This document shows, one piece after another, positions 2 through 6,998 of a stretch of DNA of 64,000 bases (position 1 is the stretch's first letter; each line of letters begins with the position of its first letter). Origin of the DNA: Pelagibacterales bacterium SAG-MED49. GTDB lineage: Bacteria; Pseudomonadota; Alphaproteobacteria; Pelagibacterales; Pelagibacteraceae. The position numbers and the translations under genes are program-made. The notes beneath the pieces were generated by a model that was given only the letters and a program-made list of their open reading frames with translations, was not told the DNA's origin and ran no database searches. Location: positions 96,542 through 160,541 of the forward strand of contig JACWEQ010000002.1 of NCBI GenBank assembly GCA_014653365.1, given 5' to 3'.

Positions 2-130
2 AGAGAGGACAAAACAGTGAAGAATGGTTTAAATGTGTGGATTGTTTCAGATAATCTTTTAAGAGGTGCAGCATTAAATGCAGTTGAGATTGCTGAGACT
101 TTAATTAAAAATAATTTTTATGGAAAATAA
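2..130 (+). CDS. asd: Aspartate-semialdehyde dehydrogenase, C-terminal end (partial)
   Basis: The reading frame is open from the window edge and ends at TAA 128-130. It encodes about 42 residues containing VWIVSDNLLRGAALNAVEIAE, which matches the conserved C-terminus of aspartate-semialdehyde dehydrogenase. That enzyme makes aspartate semialdehyde from aspartyl phosphate for lysine, threonine and methionine synthesis. The catalytic cysteine and NADP-binding domain lie outside the window. The stop overlaps the sdhC start by 11 bases, so the two genes are probably co-transcribed. The family call rests on the tail only. Confidence 0.85.
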   Translation, partial: REDKTVKNGLNVWIVSDNLLRGAALNAVEIAETLIKNNFYGK

Positions 131-503
131 AAATCCTTTATCACCACATATTCAAATTTATAGATGGCATATTTCATCTTTAGTCTCTATTTCTCATAGA
201 ATAACTGGAATAATTAATATTGTTGCAATAACTCTAATTTGTATTTGGACTGCATCATTAATTCTTGGTGACACAAACTATGATTTTATAAATTCATTTT
301 TAACTTCAATTTTCGGAAAATTTATTGTTATTGGTTTAGCTTGGTCATTTAGTTTTCAAATATTAAGTGAAATTAGGCATTTGTTAATGGATATGGGTTA
401 CGGTTTTGAATTACAAACAACTCGTATCACAGGATTAGGTGTTATTTTTGGATCAATTTTGCTAACTATTTTAATTTATTTAATAGGTAAGAATTTTATT
501 TAA
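120..503 (+). CDS. sdhC: Succinate dehydrogenase cytochrome b556-type subunit SdhC
   Basis: This 127-residue membrane anchor of complex II has three predicted helices (about 29-49, 64-84 and 104-123). The SISHRITG motif (23-30) supplies the Ser and Arg that in E. coli SdhC (S27, R31) contact ubiquinone, and IRHLLMDMGYG (85-95) matches the end of helix II. The haem b ligand of E. coli SdhC (H84, seven residues before the His of the IRH motif) aligns with Q80 here, so that ligand is absent. It is first in sdhCDAB and overlaps the asd stop by 11 bases. Confidence 0.93.
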   Translation: MENKNPLSPHIQIYRWHISSLVSISHRITGIINIVAITLICIWTASLILGDTNYDFINSFLTSIFGKFIVIGLAWSFSFQILSEIRHLLMDMGYGFELQTTRITGLGVIFGSILLTILIYLIGKNFI

Positions 504-504
504 T

Positions 505-831
505 ATGAATTTAGCAACTAAAAAATGGATTTTTTTAAAAATCTCATCAATAATTTTATTACCTCTAATGGTTTGGTTTATTTTTAATTTTATTGCAATT
601 TACGATCAAAGTTATCAGGAGGTTTTAAAATTTTTTAGTAACTCAACCACTAAATTTTTATTTAGTTTGTTTATAATATTTGCATATTTTTTTTCATCTT
701 TAAGTATTAGTGAGGTTTTTGAGGACTATATTGACAATGATAAAATCAAAAATGTCGCAAACAGTCTATTATTTTTATCTGCTATAATAATTCCATTATT
801 AACAATTATATCTTTATTTAATCTAAATTAA
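505..831 (+). CDS. sdhD: Succinate dehydrogenase hydrophobic anchor SdhD, no haem ligand
   Basis: A 108-residue, three-helix protein between sdhC and sdhA. The EDYI motif (73-76) matches the TDYV motif of E. coli SdhD and keeps the quinone-site Tyr (Y75). The haem-ligating His, expected 11 residues before the Asp (E. coli H71), is F63. The whole protein contains no histidine and no cysteine, so it cannot supply a classical axial ligand. Assignment rests on position, size and the DYI motif; overall similarity of SdhD proteins is always low. Its stop overlaps the sdhA start by one base. Confidence 0.88.
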
Positions 832-2606
832 TGAGTGCTTATAAAATTATAGACCATGAATATGACGTTGTAGTCCTAGGTGCTGGAGGATCAGGCCTTA
901 GAGCTGCTGTAGGTTTAAGCGAAGCCGGATTAAAAACCGCATGTATTTCAAAAGTTTTTCCAACAAGAAGTCATACCTCTGCTGCTCAAGGTGGAATTTC
1001 AGCTGCGTTAGGTAATATGGGAGAAGACGACTGGAGATGGCACATGTACGATACAGTAAAAGGTGCTGATTGGTTAGGAGATCAAGATAGTATCGAGTAT
1101 TTATGTAAAGAAGCACCTAAAGCAGTAATTGAGCTAGAAAAGTATGGTGTTCCATTTAGTAGAACAGACGAAGGAAAAATTTATCAAAGACCTTTTGGTG
1201 GAATGACAAAAAATTATGGAAATGGAATAGTTCAAAGAACTTGTGCAGCAGCTGATAGAACTGGTCATGCAATATTGCACACTCTTTATGGACAGGCTTT
1301 AAAACATAATACAGAATTTTTTATTGAATATTTTGCTTTAGATTTATTGATGAAAGATGGTGAGTGTAAAGGATTAATTGCTTGGAATTTAAATGATGGA
1401 ACAATTCATAGATTTAGAGCACATACAGTTATTATTGCAACAGGTGGATATGGAAAAGTATATTATTCAGCAACATCGGCTCATACGTGTACAGGTGATG
1501 GTAATGCAATGGTTTTAAGAGCCGGACTTCCATTACAAGATATGGAATTTGTTCAATTTCATCCAACTGGAATATACGGTCACGGCACTTTGATAACAGA
1601 AGGAGCTAGAGGTGAAGGTGGGTACCTTACAAATTCAAAAGGTGAGAGATTTATGGAAAGATATGCTCCTAACGCAAAAGATCTAGCATCAAGAGATGTT
1701 GTAAGTAGATCAATGTCTATTGAAATTAATGAAGGAAGAGGAGTTGGAAAAGATCAAGATCATGTTCATTTAAACTTAAGTCATTTAGATAAAGAAATTA
1801 TTGAGAGCAGATTGCCAGGTATTACTGATGCTGCAAGATTATTTGCAAATGTTGATGTTACTAAAGAACCAATTCCAGTTGTGCCGACTGTTCACTATAA
1901 TATGGGAGGTATTCCAACAAATTATAAAGGAGAAGTTTTAACAGTAAACGGCTCTGACAAAACTGTTCCTGGATTGATGGCAATCGGAGAGGCAGCATGT
2001 GTTTCTGTTCATGGAGCTAATAGATTAGGTTCTAATTCGTTAATTGATTTAGTTGTTTTTGGAAGAGCTGCTGCAAAAAGGGCTGCTGAGCTAGTAAAAC
2101 CAGGAACACCTCATGAAGAAATTGGAGAGACTGAAACTCAAAAATGTTTGGATAGGTTTGATAAACTTAGAAATGCTGAAGGTGAAAACAGTACAGCAGA
2201 TCTGAGACTTGCTATGCAAAAAACTATGCAAGCTAAATGTGCAGTTTTTAGAACTGAAAAAAATCTTAAAGAAGGAGTTGATGAGATTAGAAAAACATAT
2301 GATGGAATGGAATCTATTTCAGTCAAAGATAGATCTTTAGTGTTTAACACTGATTTAGTAGAAACTTTAGAATTTGATAATTTGATAAGACAAGCTGTAA
2401 CAACAGTAGACTCCGCATATCATAGAAAAGAAAGTAGAGGAGCTCATGCGAGAGACGATTATCCAAAAAGAGACGATGAAAAATTTATGCAACATACACT
2501 AGCTTGGTGTGATGGTAAAAATACTAAAATAAGTTATAGAGAAGTACATAAATCTACTTTAACTAACGAAGTACAATACTTCCCACCACAAGAAAGAGTT
2601 TATTAG
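831..2606 (+). CDS. sdhA: Succinate dehydrogenase flavoprotein subunit SdhA
   Basis: This 591-residue catalytic subunit oxidises succinate to fumarate on the cytoplasmic face of the membrane. It has an N-terminal FAD-binding GAGGSG motif (18-23), the SHTSAAQGG segment whose His (H48) carries covalent FAD, and an active-site region [11 protein letters not shown] with the conserved Arg. The C-terminus [19 protein letters not shown] is typical of the family. Length is normal. The ATG overlaps the sdhD stop, and the TAG shares its last base with the GTG of sdhB, indicating translational coupling. Confidence 0.98.
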
Positions 2607-3385
2607 TGGTTCAAATAAATTTACCTAAAAATTCTGAAGTAACTAAAGGTAAATATTATCAAGATAAAACTGGTTCAAAAAATATAAGAAAAGTTAATGT
2701 CTATAGATGGGATCCTTCTACGGAGGAAAATCCAAGATTAGATACTTATGAAGTAGATATGGATAATTGTCCCTCAAAAGTTTTAGATATTTTAAACAAA
2801 ATTAAAAATGAAATTGATCCAACGTTAGCTTACCGAAGATCATGTGCACATGGAGTTTGTGGATCTTGTGCTATGAACATGGGAGGAAAAAATGGCCTTG
2901 CTTGTACTACACCTCATGAAGAAATTGATGGTGATATAGATATTTATCCTTTGCCACACCTGAAAGTTAAGAGAGATTTAATTGGAGATTTAGATGGTCT
3001 TTACAAACAATATCAATCAATTGAACCATGGTTAAAAACTAATTCAAAAACAGAAAAAACAGAAATTATTCAGTCCAAAAAAGATCGTGCAAAGCTAGAT
3101 GGTGCATATGAATGTATAATGTGTGCTTGTTGTTCAACTTCGTGCCCAAGTTATTGGTGGAATGGTGATAAATACTTAGGTCCAGCAGTTTTGCTTCAAG
3201 CATATAGATGGATTGTCGATAGTAGAGATGATGAAAGAAAAGCTAGATTAAAGAAGGTTGCTGATGAATTAAAACTTTATAGATGTCATACTATTCTCAA
3301 CTGTACAAGTGCTTGTCCAAAAGGCTTGAATCCAGCAAAAGCAATAGCTGAAATTAAAAAAATGTTAGCAACTTCTAGTCTTTAA
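2606..3385 (+). CDS. sdhB: Succinate dehydrogenase iron-sulfur subunit SdhB
   Basis: This 259-residue electron-transfer subunit of complex II carries all three cluster motifs: the [2Fe-2S] set in CAHGVCGSC plus the later Cys of LACTTP, the [4Fe-4S] set [12 protein letters not shown], and the [3Fe-4S] set [12 protein letters not shown]. It starts with GTG, overlapping the sdhA TAG by one base. It closes the sdhCDAB operon. Its 3' end overlaps the convergent IclR gene by 11 bases, leaving no room for an intergenic terminator. Confidence 0.98.
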
Positions 3386-4139
3386 ACAAAGCTTTCTTTA
3401 AATTTTTAGCTGCAGATAACATCACAGGATAAATTTTTCTTAAATCATCTATATTTTTTCTACTTTTTGCTGTGTGAGTAGATAAACAAAAGCATAATTC
3501 ATTTTTGGAATTTGTAATAGGCAAAGATATTCCAACCATTCCATTAAACCACTCCTCATCATCAAATGCATATCCTTGTTTATTGATTTTATTTAACTCT
3601 TTTTTAAATTTGTCAATATCTGTAATAGTATTTTTGGCAGATTTTGGAGTTTTAATATTATTAAATATTTCTAATGCATCTACTTTTTTAATAGATGATA
3701 GATATAGCTTTCCAGAAGCAGATGCATGCAATGGTAGATGGTCACCAGCTTCTAGATTAAGCTGCATAGGCCAATGAAATTCAATTCTGTCAAAATAAAC
3801 AAGCTTTGTTCCAATTGGGACTGACAAGCTGACAGTCTCTTTTATTTCTTCAGTAAGCTTTCTTAAATATGATCTTCTAAGTGTAAAGTTTGGTTCATAG
3901 GGCAAACTATGTAAAATTATATTTCTTATTTTTGGTCCTGGAATATATTTCTTTGAATTATCGGCAATTAGAAATCTCTCATCACATAAAGTTTCTATAT
4001 GTCGATAAACTGTTGCTAAGGGAATTTCTAATTTATGAGATATTTTTTTAGCAGTAAAATTATCTGGATCTAATAAAATTTCCTCCAGGATGTTTAATAT
4101 TCTTCTAGGTGAAGTCCTACTATTTATTTCACTCATCAA
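3375..4139 (-). CDS. IclR-family transcriptional regulator
   Basis: A 254-residue protein with an N-terminal winged helix-turn-helix (about 8-65, including [22 protein letters not shown]) followed by an IclR effector domain (about 80-250, including [15 protein letters not shown] and [16 protein letters not shown]). IclR proteins sense small organic acids or aromatics and usually control adjacent catabolic genes. It lies 19 bases downstream of mmsA on the same strand, so the two are likely one transcript, and the mmsA / Fe-ADH intergenic region is the natural target. The ligand cannot be read from sequence. Confidence 0.9.
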
Positions 4140-4158
4140 CTCGAAATTTTACTAAAAA

Positions 4159-5652
4159 CTATGATAGAACTGGAATTGTAAATTCTGGACCACTATCATC
4201 TTCTGACCAAGTTACAGTTGCAGTTTTTAATTTAGTGTAAAATCTTACTCCTTCAGGTCCATGCATTGAATGATCCCCAAATAATGACCGTTTCCATCCC
4301 CCAAAGCTATGGTAAGCTACAGGCACAGGTATGGGAACGTTCACTCCTATCATTCCTATTTTTGCATTCTCAGTAAAGTGTTTTGCAATCATTCCACTTT
4401 TAGTAAATACGGCAGCTCCATTGCCTAATTCATGATCATTAACAAGCTTTAATGCATCCTCATAAGTATCAGTTGTCATCATACTCAGTACTGGACCAAA
4501 AATTTCTTCTTTATAAATTTTCATATCTGGCTTCACTTCATCAAAGATAGTAGGGCCTACAAAGTAACCATTTTCATAACCTTGTAGTTTCATATTTCTT
4601 CCATCTGAAAGTAGCTTTGCTCCCTCTTTTTCACCAGTATCAATATATCCCAATACTTTTTCATAGTGAGCTTTATTATTTAATGGACCAAAATCACTTT
4701 TTTCATCTGTGTATGGTCCTACATTTAGTTTCGAAGTTTCCTCTAATAATTTAGTTTTTAGGTTTTCTGCTGTCTTTTTTCCAACACACACTGCAACTGA
4801 AATAGCCATACATCTTTCACCAGCTGATCCAAAAGCAGAACCTATAATAGCATCAGTCGTCTTATTAACATCCGCATCAGGCATAACTACCATATGATTT
4901 TTAGCACCGCCAAGTGCTTGAACTCTTTTATTATTTTTTGTTCCAGTATGGTAAACATATTCTGCTATTGGAGTTGAGCCCACAAAACTAATTGCTTGAA
5001 CATCTTTGCTTTCTAATAAAGTATCAACAGACTCTTTATCACCATTTACCACATTTAAAACTCCAGGAGGCATTCCAGCTTCTATAGCTAATTCACCTAG
5101 TCTTATAGGACAGCTTGGATCTTTTTCTGATGGTTTAAGAACAAATGTATTTCCACAAGCTATAGCAACAGGATACATCCACATAGGTACCATTGCTGGG
5201 AAATTAAAAGGAGTTATCCCAGCACAAACCCCTAGCGGTTGTCTCATTGAATATGAATCTACATTAGTTCCAACACTAGCAGAGTGATCTCCTTTCAGCG
5301 AATCAGTTATTCCTGTAGCATACTCAACAACTTCAATTCCTCTTTGAATAGATCCTTTGGCGTCCGGTATAGTTTTACCATGCTGTTCTGAAACCATTAC
5401 AGCTAAATCTTCCATATTTTCAATTAATAAATCTTTGTACTTTGCAAGAATTCTTGATCTGTTTATTGGGGTAGTTTTTGACCATGATGTAAAAGCTTTT
5501 TTAGAACTTTCTATCGCTATCTCAACAGTATCTTTACTTGCTAATTCAACCTCTGCTATTTGTTCTCCTATCGCTGGATTAAAGATTGGACCTTTTCTTG
5601 ACTCGTTATCTGAATAAGTTTTTCCATCTATAAAATGACTTATTTTTTTCAT
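4159..5652 (-). CDS. mmsA: CoA-acylating (methyl)malonate-semialdehyde dehydrogenase (MmsA/DddC-like)
   Basis: This 497-residue aldehyde dehydrogenase has the MmsA-specific active-site segment GSAGERCMAIS with catalytic Cys, the substrate-path motif ICAGITPFNFPAMVPMWM, and a C-terminal FGGWKRSLFGDHSMHGPEGVRFYT. The family converts methylmalonate semialdehyde to propionyl-CoA, or malonate semialdehyde to acetyl-CoA, with NAD and CoA. DddC of DMSP catabolism belongs to the same family. A good Shine-Dalgarno (AAGGAG) precedes the ATG. It is divergent from an iron alcohol dehydrogenase, which could supply its semialdehyde substrate. The exact substrate is inferred. Confidence 0.92.
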   Translation of the reverse strand: MKKISHFIDGKTYSDNESRKGPIFNPAIGEQIAEVELASKDTVEIAIESSKKAFTSWSKTTPINRSRILAKYKDLLIENMEDLAVMVSEQHGKTIPDAKGSIQRGIEVVEYATGITDSLKGDHSASVGTNVDSYSMRQPLGVCAGITPFNFPAMVPMWMYPVAIACGNTFVLKPSEKDPSCPIRLGELAIEAGMPPGVLNVVNGDKESVDTLLESKDVQAISFVGSTPIAEYVYHTGTKNNKRVQALGGAKNHMVVMPDADVNKTTDAIIGSAFGSAGERCMAISVAVCVGKKTAENLKTKLLEETSKLNVGPYTDEKSDFGPLNNKAHYEKVLGYIDTGEKEGAKLLSDGRNMKLQGYENGYFVGPTIFDEVKPDMKIYKEEIFGPVLSMMTTDTYEDALKLVNDHELGNGAAVFTKSGMIAKHFTENAKIGMIGVNVPIPVPVAYHSFGGWKRSLFGDHSMHGPEGVRFYTKLKTATVTWSEDDSGPEFTIPVLS

Positions 5653-5816
5653 GGTACTCCTTTTATATTTATTTAAAAGTTACACTAGCTTTTTTTTCAT
5701 TTCAATCTCTTATTCCTTAAATGAGAAAAATATTATCAATTAGATGATTTCAGCTGTTGACTCCTTAATTTACATAAGTTTAGATCAGGCTTAAAAAATT
5801 AAAATGAAAGATAGTT
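5653..5816. promoter_or_regulatory. Divergent control region between mmsA and Fe-ADH
   Basis: This 164-base AT-rich region separates the divergent mmsA and alcohol dehydrogenase genes and is among the longest non-coding stretches in the window. It contains a credible sigma-70 promoter for the plus strand (annotated separately) and the mmsA ribosome site. An imperfect 11-mer palindrome, ATCAATTAGAT (5735-5745), is a possible operator for the adjacent IclR regulator. That role is inference from position only, since imperfect AT-rich palindromes are common here. Confidence 0.4.
5757..5785 (+). promoter_or_regulatory. Candidate sigma-70 promoter for Fe-ADH/TRAP operon
   Basis: TTGACT (5757-5762), a 17-base spacer and TTAGAT (5780-5785) match the -35/-10 consensus well. 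The predicted start near 5792 gives a leader of about 25 bases to the TTG codon at 5817. Confidence 0.5.
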
Positions 5817-6998
5817 TTGATTAAAAGAGACAACGTACGAGTTTGTGTGCCAAGATATTTGCAAATTGGCAAAGGTAGCTTAAATGAATTACCTGAAATT
5901 ATAAATATTCTAGGGTCAATAAAATCATTATTAATTGTAACGGATAAACAAATGGTATCATTTGGTTATGTTAAAAAATTACAAGAAGTTTTAACTAAAG
6001 CAGGATTAAAATCAGATGTTTTTGATGACACGGTACCCGATCCAACAGATACAGTCGTTTTAAATGGTATTAAATTCTTAGAAAAATGCAAAAATGATGC
6101 TGTCATAGGGTTTGGTGGAGGTAGTCCAATAGATACAGCTAAAGCGATTGCTGCGATGGCTAAATATAGTAAAAATATTCAAGATTATAAACCACCTTCA
6201 ATGTTTGATAAAAAAGGTTTACCAATCATTGCAATACCCACAACAGCTGGAACAGGTTCAGAGGTAACGCATCATGCAGTGATTATAGATTCTAATAATA
6301 ATGAGAAAATTTCTTGCAGAGGCGAAGGGTTTGTTCCAATTTGTGCTATTGTTGACTATGAATTAACTTTAACAAAACCTAGAAGATTAACAATTGATAG
6401 TGCAATTGATACTTTAACGCATGGAATAGAAGCATATGTAAGTAAAAAAGCTACACTATTTTCGGATAGAATGGCACTAGATACAATAAGACTTGTTTCA
6501 CAAAATATTTACGCCGTTGATAAAGACCCAAAAGATTTAAAAGCAAGAGAAGGACTAATGTTAGCAGCTACATTGGGTGGTTTGGCATTTTCAAATGCAT
6601 CTATTTGCTTGGTGCATGGAATGAGTAGGCCTTTAGGAAGTAATTTTAAAGTTCCACATGGCCTAAGTAATGCAATGCTATTGCCAACTATAACTGAATT
6701 TTCAATAGAGCATGCAAAGAGTAGATATGCTGACTGTAGTCGGGCAGGTAATTTTGCACATCCTGAGGATTCTGATGATGTAGCATGTGATAAATTAATT
6801 AAAGGTCTTTATAAAATTAATAATGATTTTGAAGTTCCATCAATGCTTAATTTTGGAATTAATCAAAAAAATTTTGAGGAAGAGTTAGAAAATATGGCAA
6901 CTGATGCAGAAAATTCAGGAGCACCAAACCTCAATCCAAGAGTGCCTTCTGTAAACGAGATGGTAGATCTTTACGGACAAGCATGGAGAGCATTTTAG
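5817..6998 (+). CDS. Iron-containing alcohol dehydrogenase (DddB-like candidate)
   Basis: This 393-residue group III (Fe-dependent) alcohol dehydrogenase has the NAD-binding GGGSPIDTAKAIA, the metal-binding DSAIDTLTHGIEAY (Asp and His) and VHGMSRPLGSNFKVPHG (two His). The start is taken as TTG 5817. An in-frame stop lies at 5805-5807, the nearby ATG at 5804 is out of frame and stops within a few codons, and no in-frame ATG occurs until 5952, inside the conserved domain. Group III members oxidise diverse hydroxy acids, diols and alcohols. Pairing with an MmsA-type enzyme suggests a 3-hydroxyacid substrate such as 3-hydroxypropionate. That is inference. Confidence 0.88.
   Translation: MIKRDNVRVCVPRYLQIGKGSLNELPEIINILGSIKSLLIVTDKQMVSFGYVKKLQEVLTKAGLKSDVFDDTVPDPTDTVVLNGIKFLEKCKNDAVIGFGGGSPIDTAKAIAAMAKYSKNIQDYKPPSMFDKKGLPIIAIPTTAGTGSEVTHHAVIIDSNNNEKISCRGEGFVPICAIVDYELTLTKPRRLTIDSAIDTLTHGIEAYVSKKATLFSDRMALDTIRLVSQNIYAVDKDPKDLKAREGLMLAATLGGLAFSNASICLVHGMSRPLGSNFKVPHGLSNAMLLPTITEFSIEHAKSRYADCSRAGNFAHPEDSDDVACDKLIKGLYKINNDFEVPSMLNFGINQKNFEEELENMATDAENSGAPNLNPRVPSVNEMVDLYGQAWRAF

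What the first reader, a model, noticed from the sequence alone, without database searches (positions are those of the whole stretch)
120..831. Succinate dehydrogenase anchor subunits lack both haem b ligands
In E. coli SdhC the haem ligand is H84, seven residues before the His of the IRH motif; here that position is Q80. In E. coli SdhD it is H71, eleven residues before the Asp of DYV; here it is F63, and SdhD has no His or Cys anywhere. The quinone-site residues (SdhC Ser/Arg, SdhD Tyr) are kept. Loss in both partners suggests a deliberately haem-free complex II, which would save iron in a streamlined marine bacterium.
Basis: partly seen in the sequence, partly recalled or inferred. Interest (0 to 1): 0.7.

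Follow-up and report, generated by a model that had tools for sequence, protein, structure and literature searches.

The report
SAR11 complex II probably without haem
In the most abundant ocean bacteria (SAR11) the respiratory enzyme succinate dehydrogenase has lost both residues that normally hold its haem, and the haem pocket has been rebuilt much as in the haem-free yeast enzyme, so these cells probably run a haem-less version of an enzyme whose haem has no agreed function.

Summary
The window is Pelagibacteraceae (SAR11). SdhC has Gln80 at the E. coli H84 column; SdhD has Phe63 at the H71 column and no His or Cys. Among 107 distinct SdhC/SdhD pairs from other alphaproteobacteria, SdhC His and the Gly one turn later are kept in 107, and the SdhD His and its Gly in 106. 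In the window's clade (114 distinct pairs, three genus-level groups) SdhD never has the His, SdhC Gly88 is always Glu, SdhD Arg20 is nearly always Lys, and SdhC H84 is Gln in 87. Quinone-site residues are invariant. Freshwater (LD12) and allied SAR11 genera keep the canonical pocket. Loss was stepwise: SdhD first, SdhC later and repeatedly. The sister family lost only the SdhC ligand (Tyr/Asn). The published haem-free yeast enzyme has the same kind of repair in mirror image (Gly to Glu at ligand+4, salt-bridged to the Arg that held a propionate). Best explanation: a naturally haem-free type C complex II in which Glu84 and Lys12 replace propionate contacts. Iron saving is possible but unproven: one Fe of ten, and haem is still made for complexes III and IV. 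No spectrum or structure exists. The library searches found no earlier report.

The parts
120..503 (+). sdhC, cytochrome b556-type anchor subunit, 127 aa, 3 TM
   Evidence: AF2 pLDDT 88, Foldseek to E. coli SdhC
357..359 (+). SdhC Gln80 (CAA) at the E. coli H84 haem-ligand column
369..371 (+). SdhC Glu84 (GAA) at the E. coli G88 column, one turn after the ligand; Glu in 114/114 distinct pairs of the clade, Gly in 107/107 other alphaproteobacteria
198..200 (+). SdhC Arg27 (E. coli R31), quinone-site and former propionate residue, kept
   Evidence: role from PMC3290573
378..380 (+). SdhC His87 (E. coli H91), kept; a propionate contact in haem enzymes, not an axial ligand
   Evidence: PMC3290573
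505..831 (+). sdhD, hydrophobic anchor subunit, 108 aa, 3 TM, no His or Cys
   Evidence: AF2 pLDDT 95, Foldseek to E. coli SdhD TM 0.76-0.84
691..693 (+). SdhD Phe63 at the E. coli H71 haem-ligand column
703..705 (+). SdhD Ser67 at the conserved Gly75 column
538..540 (+). SdhD Lys12 at the E. coli R20 column (propionate contact); Lys in 112/114 of the clade
   Evidence: PMC3290573
712..714 (+). SdhD Glu70 at the E. coli Q78 column; Glu throughout the order, canonical genera included
724..729 (+). SdhD Asp74-Tyr75 of the quinone site, kept
831..2606 (+). sdhA, flavoprotein
2606..3385 (+). sdhB, iron-sulfur protein; YRCHT motif (E. coli H207 region) kept

Best explanation
It is a complete, functional succinate:ubiquinone oxidoreductase of type C architecture whose membrane anchor no longer binds haem b. 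Electrons go from FAD through the three Fe-S clusters straight to ubiquinone at the intact SdhB/C/D site; haem is off this path. The cavity between SdhC and SdhD was closed by Phe/Tyr at the SdhD ligand and Gln at the SdhC ligand. Glu84 of SdhC (former Gly), paired with Lys12 of SdhD, probably replaces the lost propionate contacts. Shown: residue losses, invariant replacements, kept quinone site, phylogenetic order of events. Inferred: absence of haem in the folded enzyme, the Glu84-Lys12 contact, and unimpaired activity.
For: Distribution of ligand and pocket residues over 255 distinct SdhC/SdhD pairs. Fixed differences from canonical SAR11 relatives include SdhC G88 (11/11 Gly vs 137/137 Glu) and SdhD R20, V19, A23 and H71; V19 and A23 are among the haem-adjacent residues mutated in PMC3290573. 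Propionate partners and the R20/R31 pseudo-symmetry come from PMC3290573. The haem-free yeast enzyme has ligand His to Tyr108 and Gly to Glu112 at ligand+4, salt-bridged to Arg97 in place of a propionate (PMC13066397). A haem-free E. coli variant is active and supports growth on succinate (PMC3290573). Only one SdhC/SdhD pair was found in the genome.
Against: No spectrum, metal analysis or structure of a SAR11 complex II. E. coli single-ligand mutants retain haem (title of ref. 8 in PMC3290573), so ligand loss alone does not prove haem loss. SdhC H84 persists in 26 of 114 distinct pairs of the clade and reappears in three genomes of the window's genus. The Glu84-Lys12 contact is inferred by pseudo-symmetry, not modelled; the two subunits could not be folded together here.
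Confidence: 0.82

Rival explanations
1. Haem b is still bound, held by other residues (for example SdhC His26 or His87, or SdhD Met22) or by packing and propionate contacts alone.
For: E. coli single-ligand mutants keep haem (reference title). SdhC His26 (H30 column, in contact with the porphyrin in E. coli) is present in 134/137 and SdhD Met22 in 131/137 of the clade.
Against: Neither candidate is invariant: His26 is Thr in 3 and Met22 is Leu, Ile or Lys in 6. His87 is a propionate contact in haem enzymes and is equally conserved there. SdhD offers no His or Cys in the window. An invariant Glu sits one turn from the ligand where haem enzymes have an invariant Gly.
Confidence: 0.13
2. Haem loss is neutral decay after the haem became dispensable, not an adaptation (a rival on motive, compatible with the best explanation).
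For: Stepwise, scattered loss of the second ligand, with SdhC His/Gln/Phe all tolerated once the SdhD ligand is gone; haem is dispensable for E. coli SDH activity.
Against: Glu at column 88 is invariant over 114 distinct pairs and Gln80 is nearly fixed in the window's genus, which suggests selection on the repaired pocket.
Confidence: 0.5
3. Haem loss is an iron-saving adaptation of open-ocean SAR11.
For: The clade is largely marine single-cell genomes by their record titles (habitat inferred), whereas the group holding freshwater LD12 (G065, 1,160,202 bp, the length of LSUCC0530 in PMC6018831) and its sister genera keeps both ligands. Estuarine waters have been noted as Fe2+-rich (PMC10030771).
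Against: One phylogenetic contrast only. Saves one Fe of about ten per complex (established knowledge). Haem synthesis, complex III and IV are kept. Most other small-genome alphaproteobacteria sampled keep both His, as does a SAR116 genome (L217).
Confidence: 0.25
4. Sequencing or annotation artefact.
For: None.
Against: Same residues in hundreds of independent genomes, including complete single-contig ones.
Confidence: 0.005

Closest known systems
Saccharomyces cerevisiae complex II (PDB 9QDL/9QDM, PMC13066397)
   Same: Type C architecture without haem; axial His replaced; Gly at ligand+4 replaced by Glu; a Lys helps replace propionate contacts; quinone site kept.
   Different: In yeast the Glu is in the SdhD homologue and the SdhC His remains, bonded to the new Tyr. 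In SAR11 the Glu is in SdhC and both His are gone: a mirror-image, independent solution.
Escherichia coli SdhCDAB (PDB 1NEK)
   Same: Gene order, subunit folds, quinone-site residues.
   Different: E. coli has bis-His haem b (SdhC H84, SdhD H71), Gly88 and Gly75.
E. coli fumarate reductase FrdABCD (type D)
   Same: Haem-free anchor; can replace SDH when overexpressed (PMC3290573).
   Different: Different anchor families; the window proteins match Sdh_cyt (PF01127), TIGR02970 and TIGR02968.
Tetrahymena thermophila and Perkinsus marinus complex II (cited in PMC13066397)
   Same: Natural complex II without membrane haem.
   Different: Highly divergent protist anchors, not compared here.

Membership tests
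Type C succinate:quinone oxidoreductase | two anchor subunits of 3 TM helices each | tested here: met
Type C succinate:quinone oxidoreductase | sdhCDAB operon with flavoprotein and Fe-S subunit | tested here: met
Type C succinate:quinone oxidoreductase | quinone-site residues SdhC Ser/Arg, SdhD Asp-Tyr | tested here: met
Type C succinate:quinone oxidoreductase | one haem b ligated by one His from each anchor subunit | tested here: not met
   canonical axial His absent in both subunits; haem content itself not testable
Haem-free type C complex II (yeast-like) | at least one axial His replaced | tested here: met
   both replaced
Haem-free type C complex II (yeast-like) | Gly at ligand+4 of the SdhD homologue replaced by Glu | tested here: not met
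   SdhD has Ser67; the Glu is at the mirror position in SdhC
Haem-free type C complex II (yeast-like) | no haem in spectrum or density | not testable with these tools
   needs protein
Type D (FrdCD) anchors | membership of FrdC/FrdD families | tested here: not met
   Pfam hits for both anchors are Sdh_cyt PF01127 only

The most novel reading that the evidence does not exclude
The order Pelagibacterales lost complex II haem at least twice by opposite routes: the Pelagibacter side lost the SdhD ligand first and gained SdhC Glu88 and SdhD Lys20; the sister family lost the SdhC ligand to Tyr or Asn while keeping the SdhD His, the mirror image of yeast's His-Tyr pair. Intermediates survive (His/His with SdhD Gly75Ser in L201 and L302). 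This would be a natural series of haem removal in a respiratory complex of the ocean's most abundant bacteria.
Probability: 0.6. Interest if true: 0.72.

Novelty: new variant of a known kind. Interest (0 to 1): 0.62.

Why it matters
The function of complex II haem b has been argued over for decades; E. coli mutants show it is not needed for turnover. If the dominant SAR11 lineages run this enzyme without haem while close relatives keep it, nature has done the removal experiment repeatedly, with intermediates, in culturable strains. It would also lower the haem quota assigned to very abundant marine bacteria and show that yeast's haem-free solution is a repeatable evolutionary outcome.

Tried and rejected
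A single-sequence phmmer of SdhD against the PDB gave nothing; a profile and a fold search did. The profile aligner put a one-residue gap at the SdhD ligand column and first showed Ser there; MAFFT and counting back from the DY motif give Phe. I therefore make no claim on the E. coli I68 column listed. Folding SdhC and SdhD as a pair was not possible with the single-chain tool; an artificial fusion was not tried because both chains run N-in/C-out. Alternative ligands His26 and Met22 were considered and found not invariant. Library searches for a report of SAR11 complex II lacking haem found none. Two key E. coli papers (PMC2888824, PMC2084287) are not held, so their results are cited only through PMC3290573 and PMC13066397. 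The length of HTCC1062 (1,308,759 bp, contig of G066) is from memory; attempts to confirm it in held papers failed.

Full report
Identity and observation. The window lies in a Pelagibacteraceae (SAR11) genome: named relatives of its SdhC are all SAR11 down to about 45-50% identity. The operon is sdhC 120..503, sdhD 505..831, sdhA 831..2606, sdhB 2606..3385. SdhC and SdhD match TIGR02970 and TIGR02968 above cut-off. Both fold confidently as three-helix anchors (pLDDT 88 and 95) with E. coli SdhC and SdhD among their best PDB matches. SdhC Gln80 occupies the E. coli H84 column and SdhD Phe63 the H71 column; SdhD has no His or Cys.

Distribution. I collected SdhC/SdhD pairs from the order, the class and named genomes and read the haem-pocket columns by E. 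coli numbering. In 107 distinct pairs from other alphaproteobacteria (with a few other proteobacterial records), SdhC has His84 and Gly88 in 107, and SdhD has His71 and Gly75 in 106. The single exception, L131, has Tyr and Ser in SdhD. In the window's clade, three genus-level groups with 114 distinct pairs, the picture is: SdhC84 Gln 87, His 26, Phe 1; SdhC88 Glu 114; SdhD71 Phe 95, Tyr 17, Asn 2; SdhD75 Ser, Thr or Asn; SdhD20 Lys 112, Arg 2. SdhC R31, H91, D95 and SdhD D82, Y83 are invariant there. Glu at 88 and loss of the SdhD His coincide without exception inside this family.

Census. A DNA pattern for Phe-Gln-x3-Glu-x-Arg-His-x2-(Trp/Met)-Asp occurs in 247 of 397 genomes of the order; by my count 236 are in the window's genus, 7 in g8 and 4 in g9. 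The corresponding His pattern occurs in 61, only 3 of them in the window's genus. Those three still have Glu88 and Phe71 (L299-L301), so they look like reversions at SdhC84 alone.

Order of events. On a tree of SdhA+SdhB, genera g5, g6 and g7, which keep all four canonical residues, form the sister group of the rest of the family. G065 in g6 is 1,160,202 bp long, the published length of the freshwater isolate LSUCC0530 (PMC6018831). Then come two sequences (L201, L302) with both His but Ser at SdhD75, and the sequences that have lost the SdhD His. The branching among L201/L302, g1 and g8+g9 is unresolved; one clade for all Glu88 sequences is not rejected (AU p = 0.44). SdhC84 then changed several times (7 His/non-His changes on the whole tree). 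The sister family f2 shows the reverse: SdhC Tyr or Asn at 84 and Cys, Ser or Asp at 88 with SdhD His and Gly kept, except g3, which is canonical.

Why haem is probably gone. In E. coli the two propionates are held by SdhC R31 with SdhD Q78, and by SdhC H91 with SdhD R20 and SdhB H207, with SdhC R31 and SdhD R20 related by a pseudo-two-fold axis (PMC3290573). The columns that separate the loss clade from its canonical relatives include SdhC G88 and SdhD V19, R20, A23 and H71, of which V19 and A23 were mutated in that paper as haem-adjacent residues. In the solved haem-free yeast complex II, the SdhD-side ligand is Tyr108, the Gly four residues later is Glu112, and this Glu salt-bridges the R31 homologue in place of a propionate; Asp167-Lys73 is another replacement bond (PMC13066397). 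SAR11 has the Glu at the pseudo-symmetric position of SdhC, so its expected partner is SdhD Lys12 at the R20 column. That contact is inference; no two-chain model could be made here.

Mechanism. Electrons pass FAD to Fe-S clusters to ubiquinone; the haem is a side cofactor in E. coli, and a haem-free variant is active and supports growth on succinate (PMC3290573). The kept quinone site therefore predicts a working enzyme. The genome has no second SdhC/SdhD pair (it is 89% complete). It retains ferrochelatase, cytochrome b and COX1, so haem is available and only complex II seems to have dropped it.

Motive. Iron saving is plausible but weakly supported. It is one contrast (largely marine clade against the LD12-containing group), one Fe of about ten per complex, and other small-genome alphaproteobacteria sampled mostly keep both ligands. 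Neutral loss with local repair explains the stepwise pattern as well; the invariant Glu points to selection on the repair rather than on iron.

Verdict. New variant of a known kind: a likely haem-free type C complex II in bacteria, convergent in mirror image with yeast. It fails the haem-ligand criterion of type C by sequence, while meeting every other feature tested. Confidence 0.82 for absence of haem, about 0.5 for the Glu84-Lys12 replacement, 0.25 for iron as the cause.

Noticed in passing
L283-L286, L212, L216 (family f2): The sister SAR11 family has lost the SdhC ligand (Tyr, or Asn in L287) but keeps the SdhD His and Gly, the mirror image of yeast's His-Tyr pair; possibly an independent haem loss or a Tyr/His-ligated haem.
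   Followed up: partly
L131 (G349, another alphaproteobacterial family): SdhD Tyr and Ser at the ligand and Gly columns with SdhC His and Gly kept, as in yeast: an isolated further candidate for haem loss.
   Followed up: no
window SdhC His17 (168..170): A His at the E. coli P21 column is present in 103 of 106 Gln80 sequences but only 8 of 30 His84 sequences of the clade; meaning unknown, possibly only shared ancestry.
   Followed up: partly
window SdhD Met22 (568..570): Met at the E. coli I30 column in 131/137 of the clade, against Leu in most canonical SAR11 relatives; may fill the cavity.
   Followed up: partly
window 3375..6998: Next to sdhB lie an IclR-type regulator (-), an aldehyde dehydrogenase (-) and an iron-type alcohol dehydrogenase (+), identified by Pfam only.
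   Followed up: no
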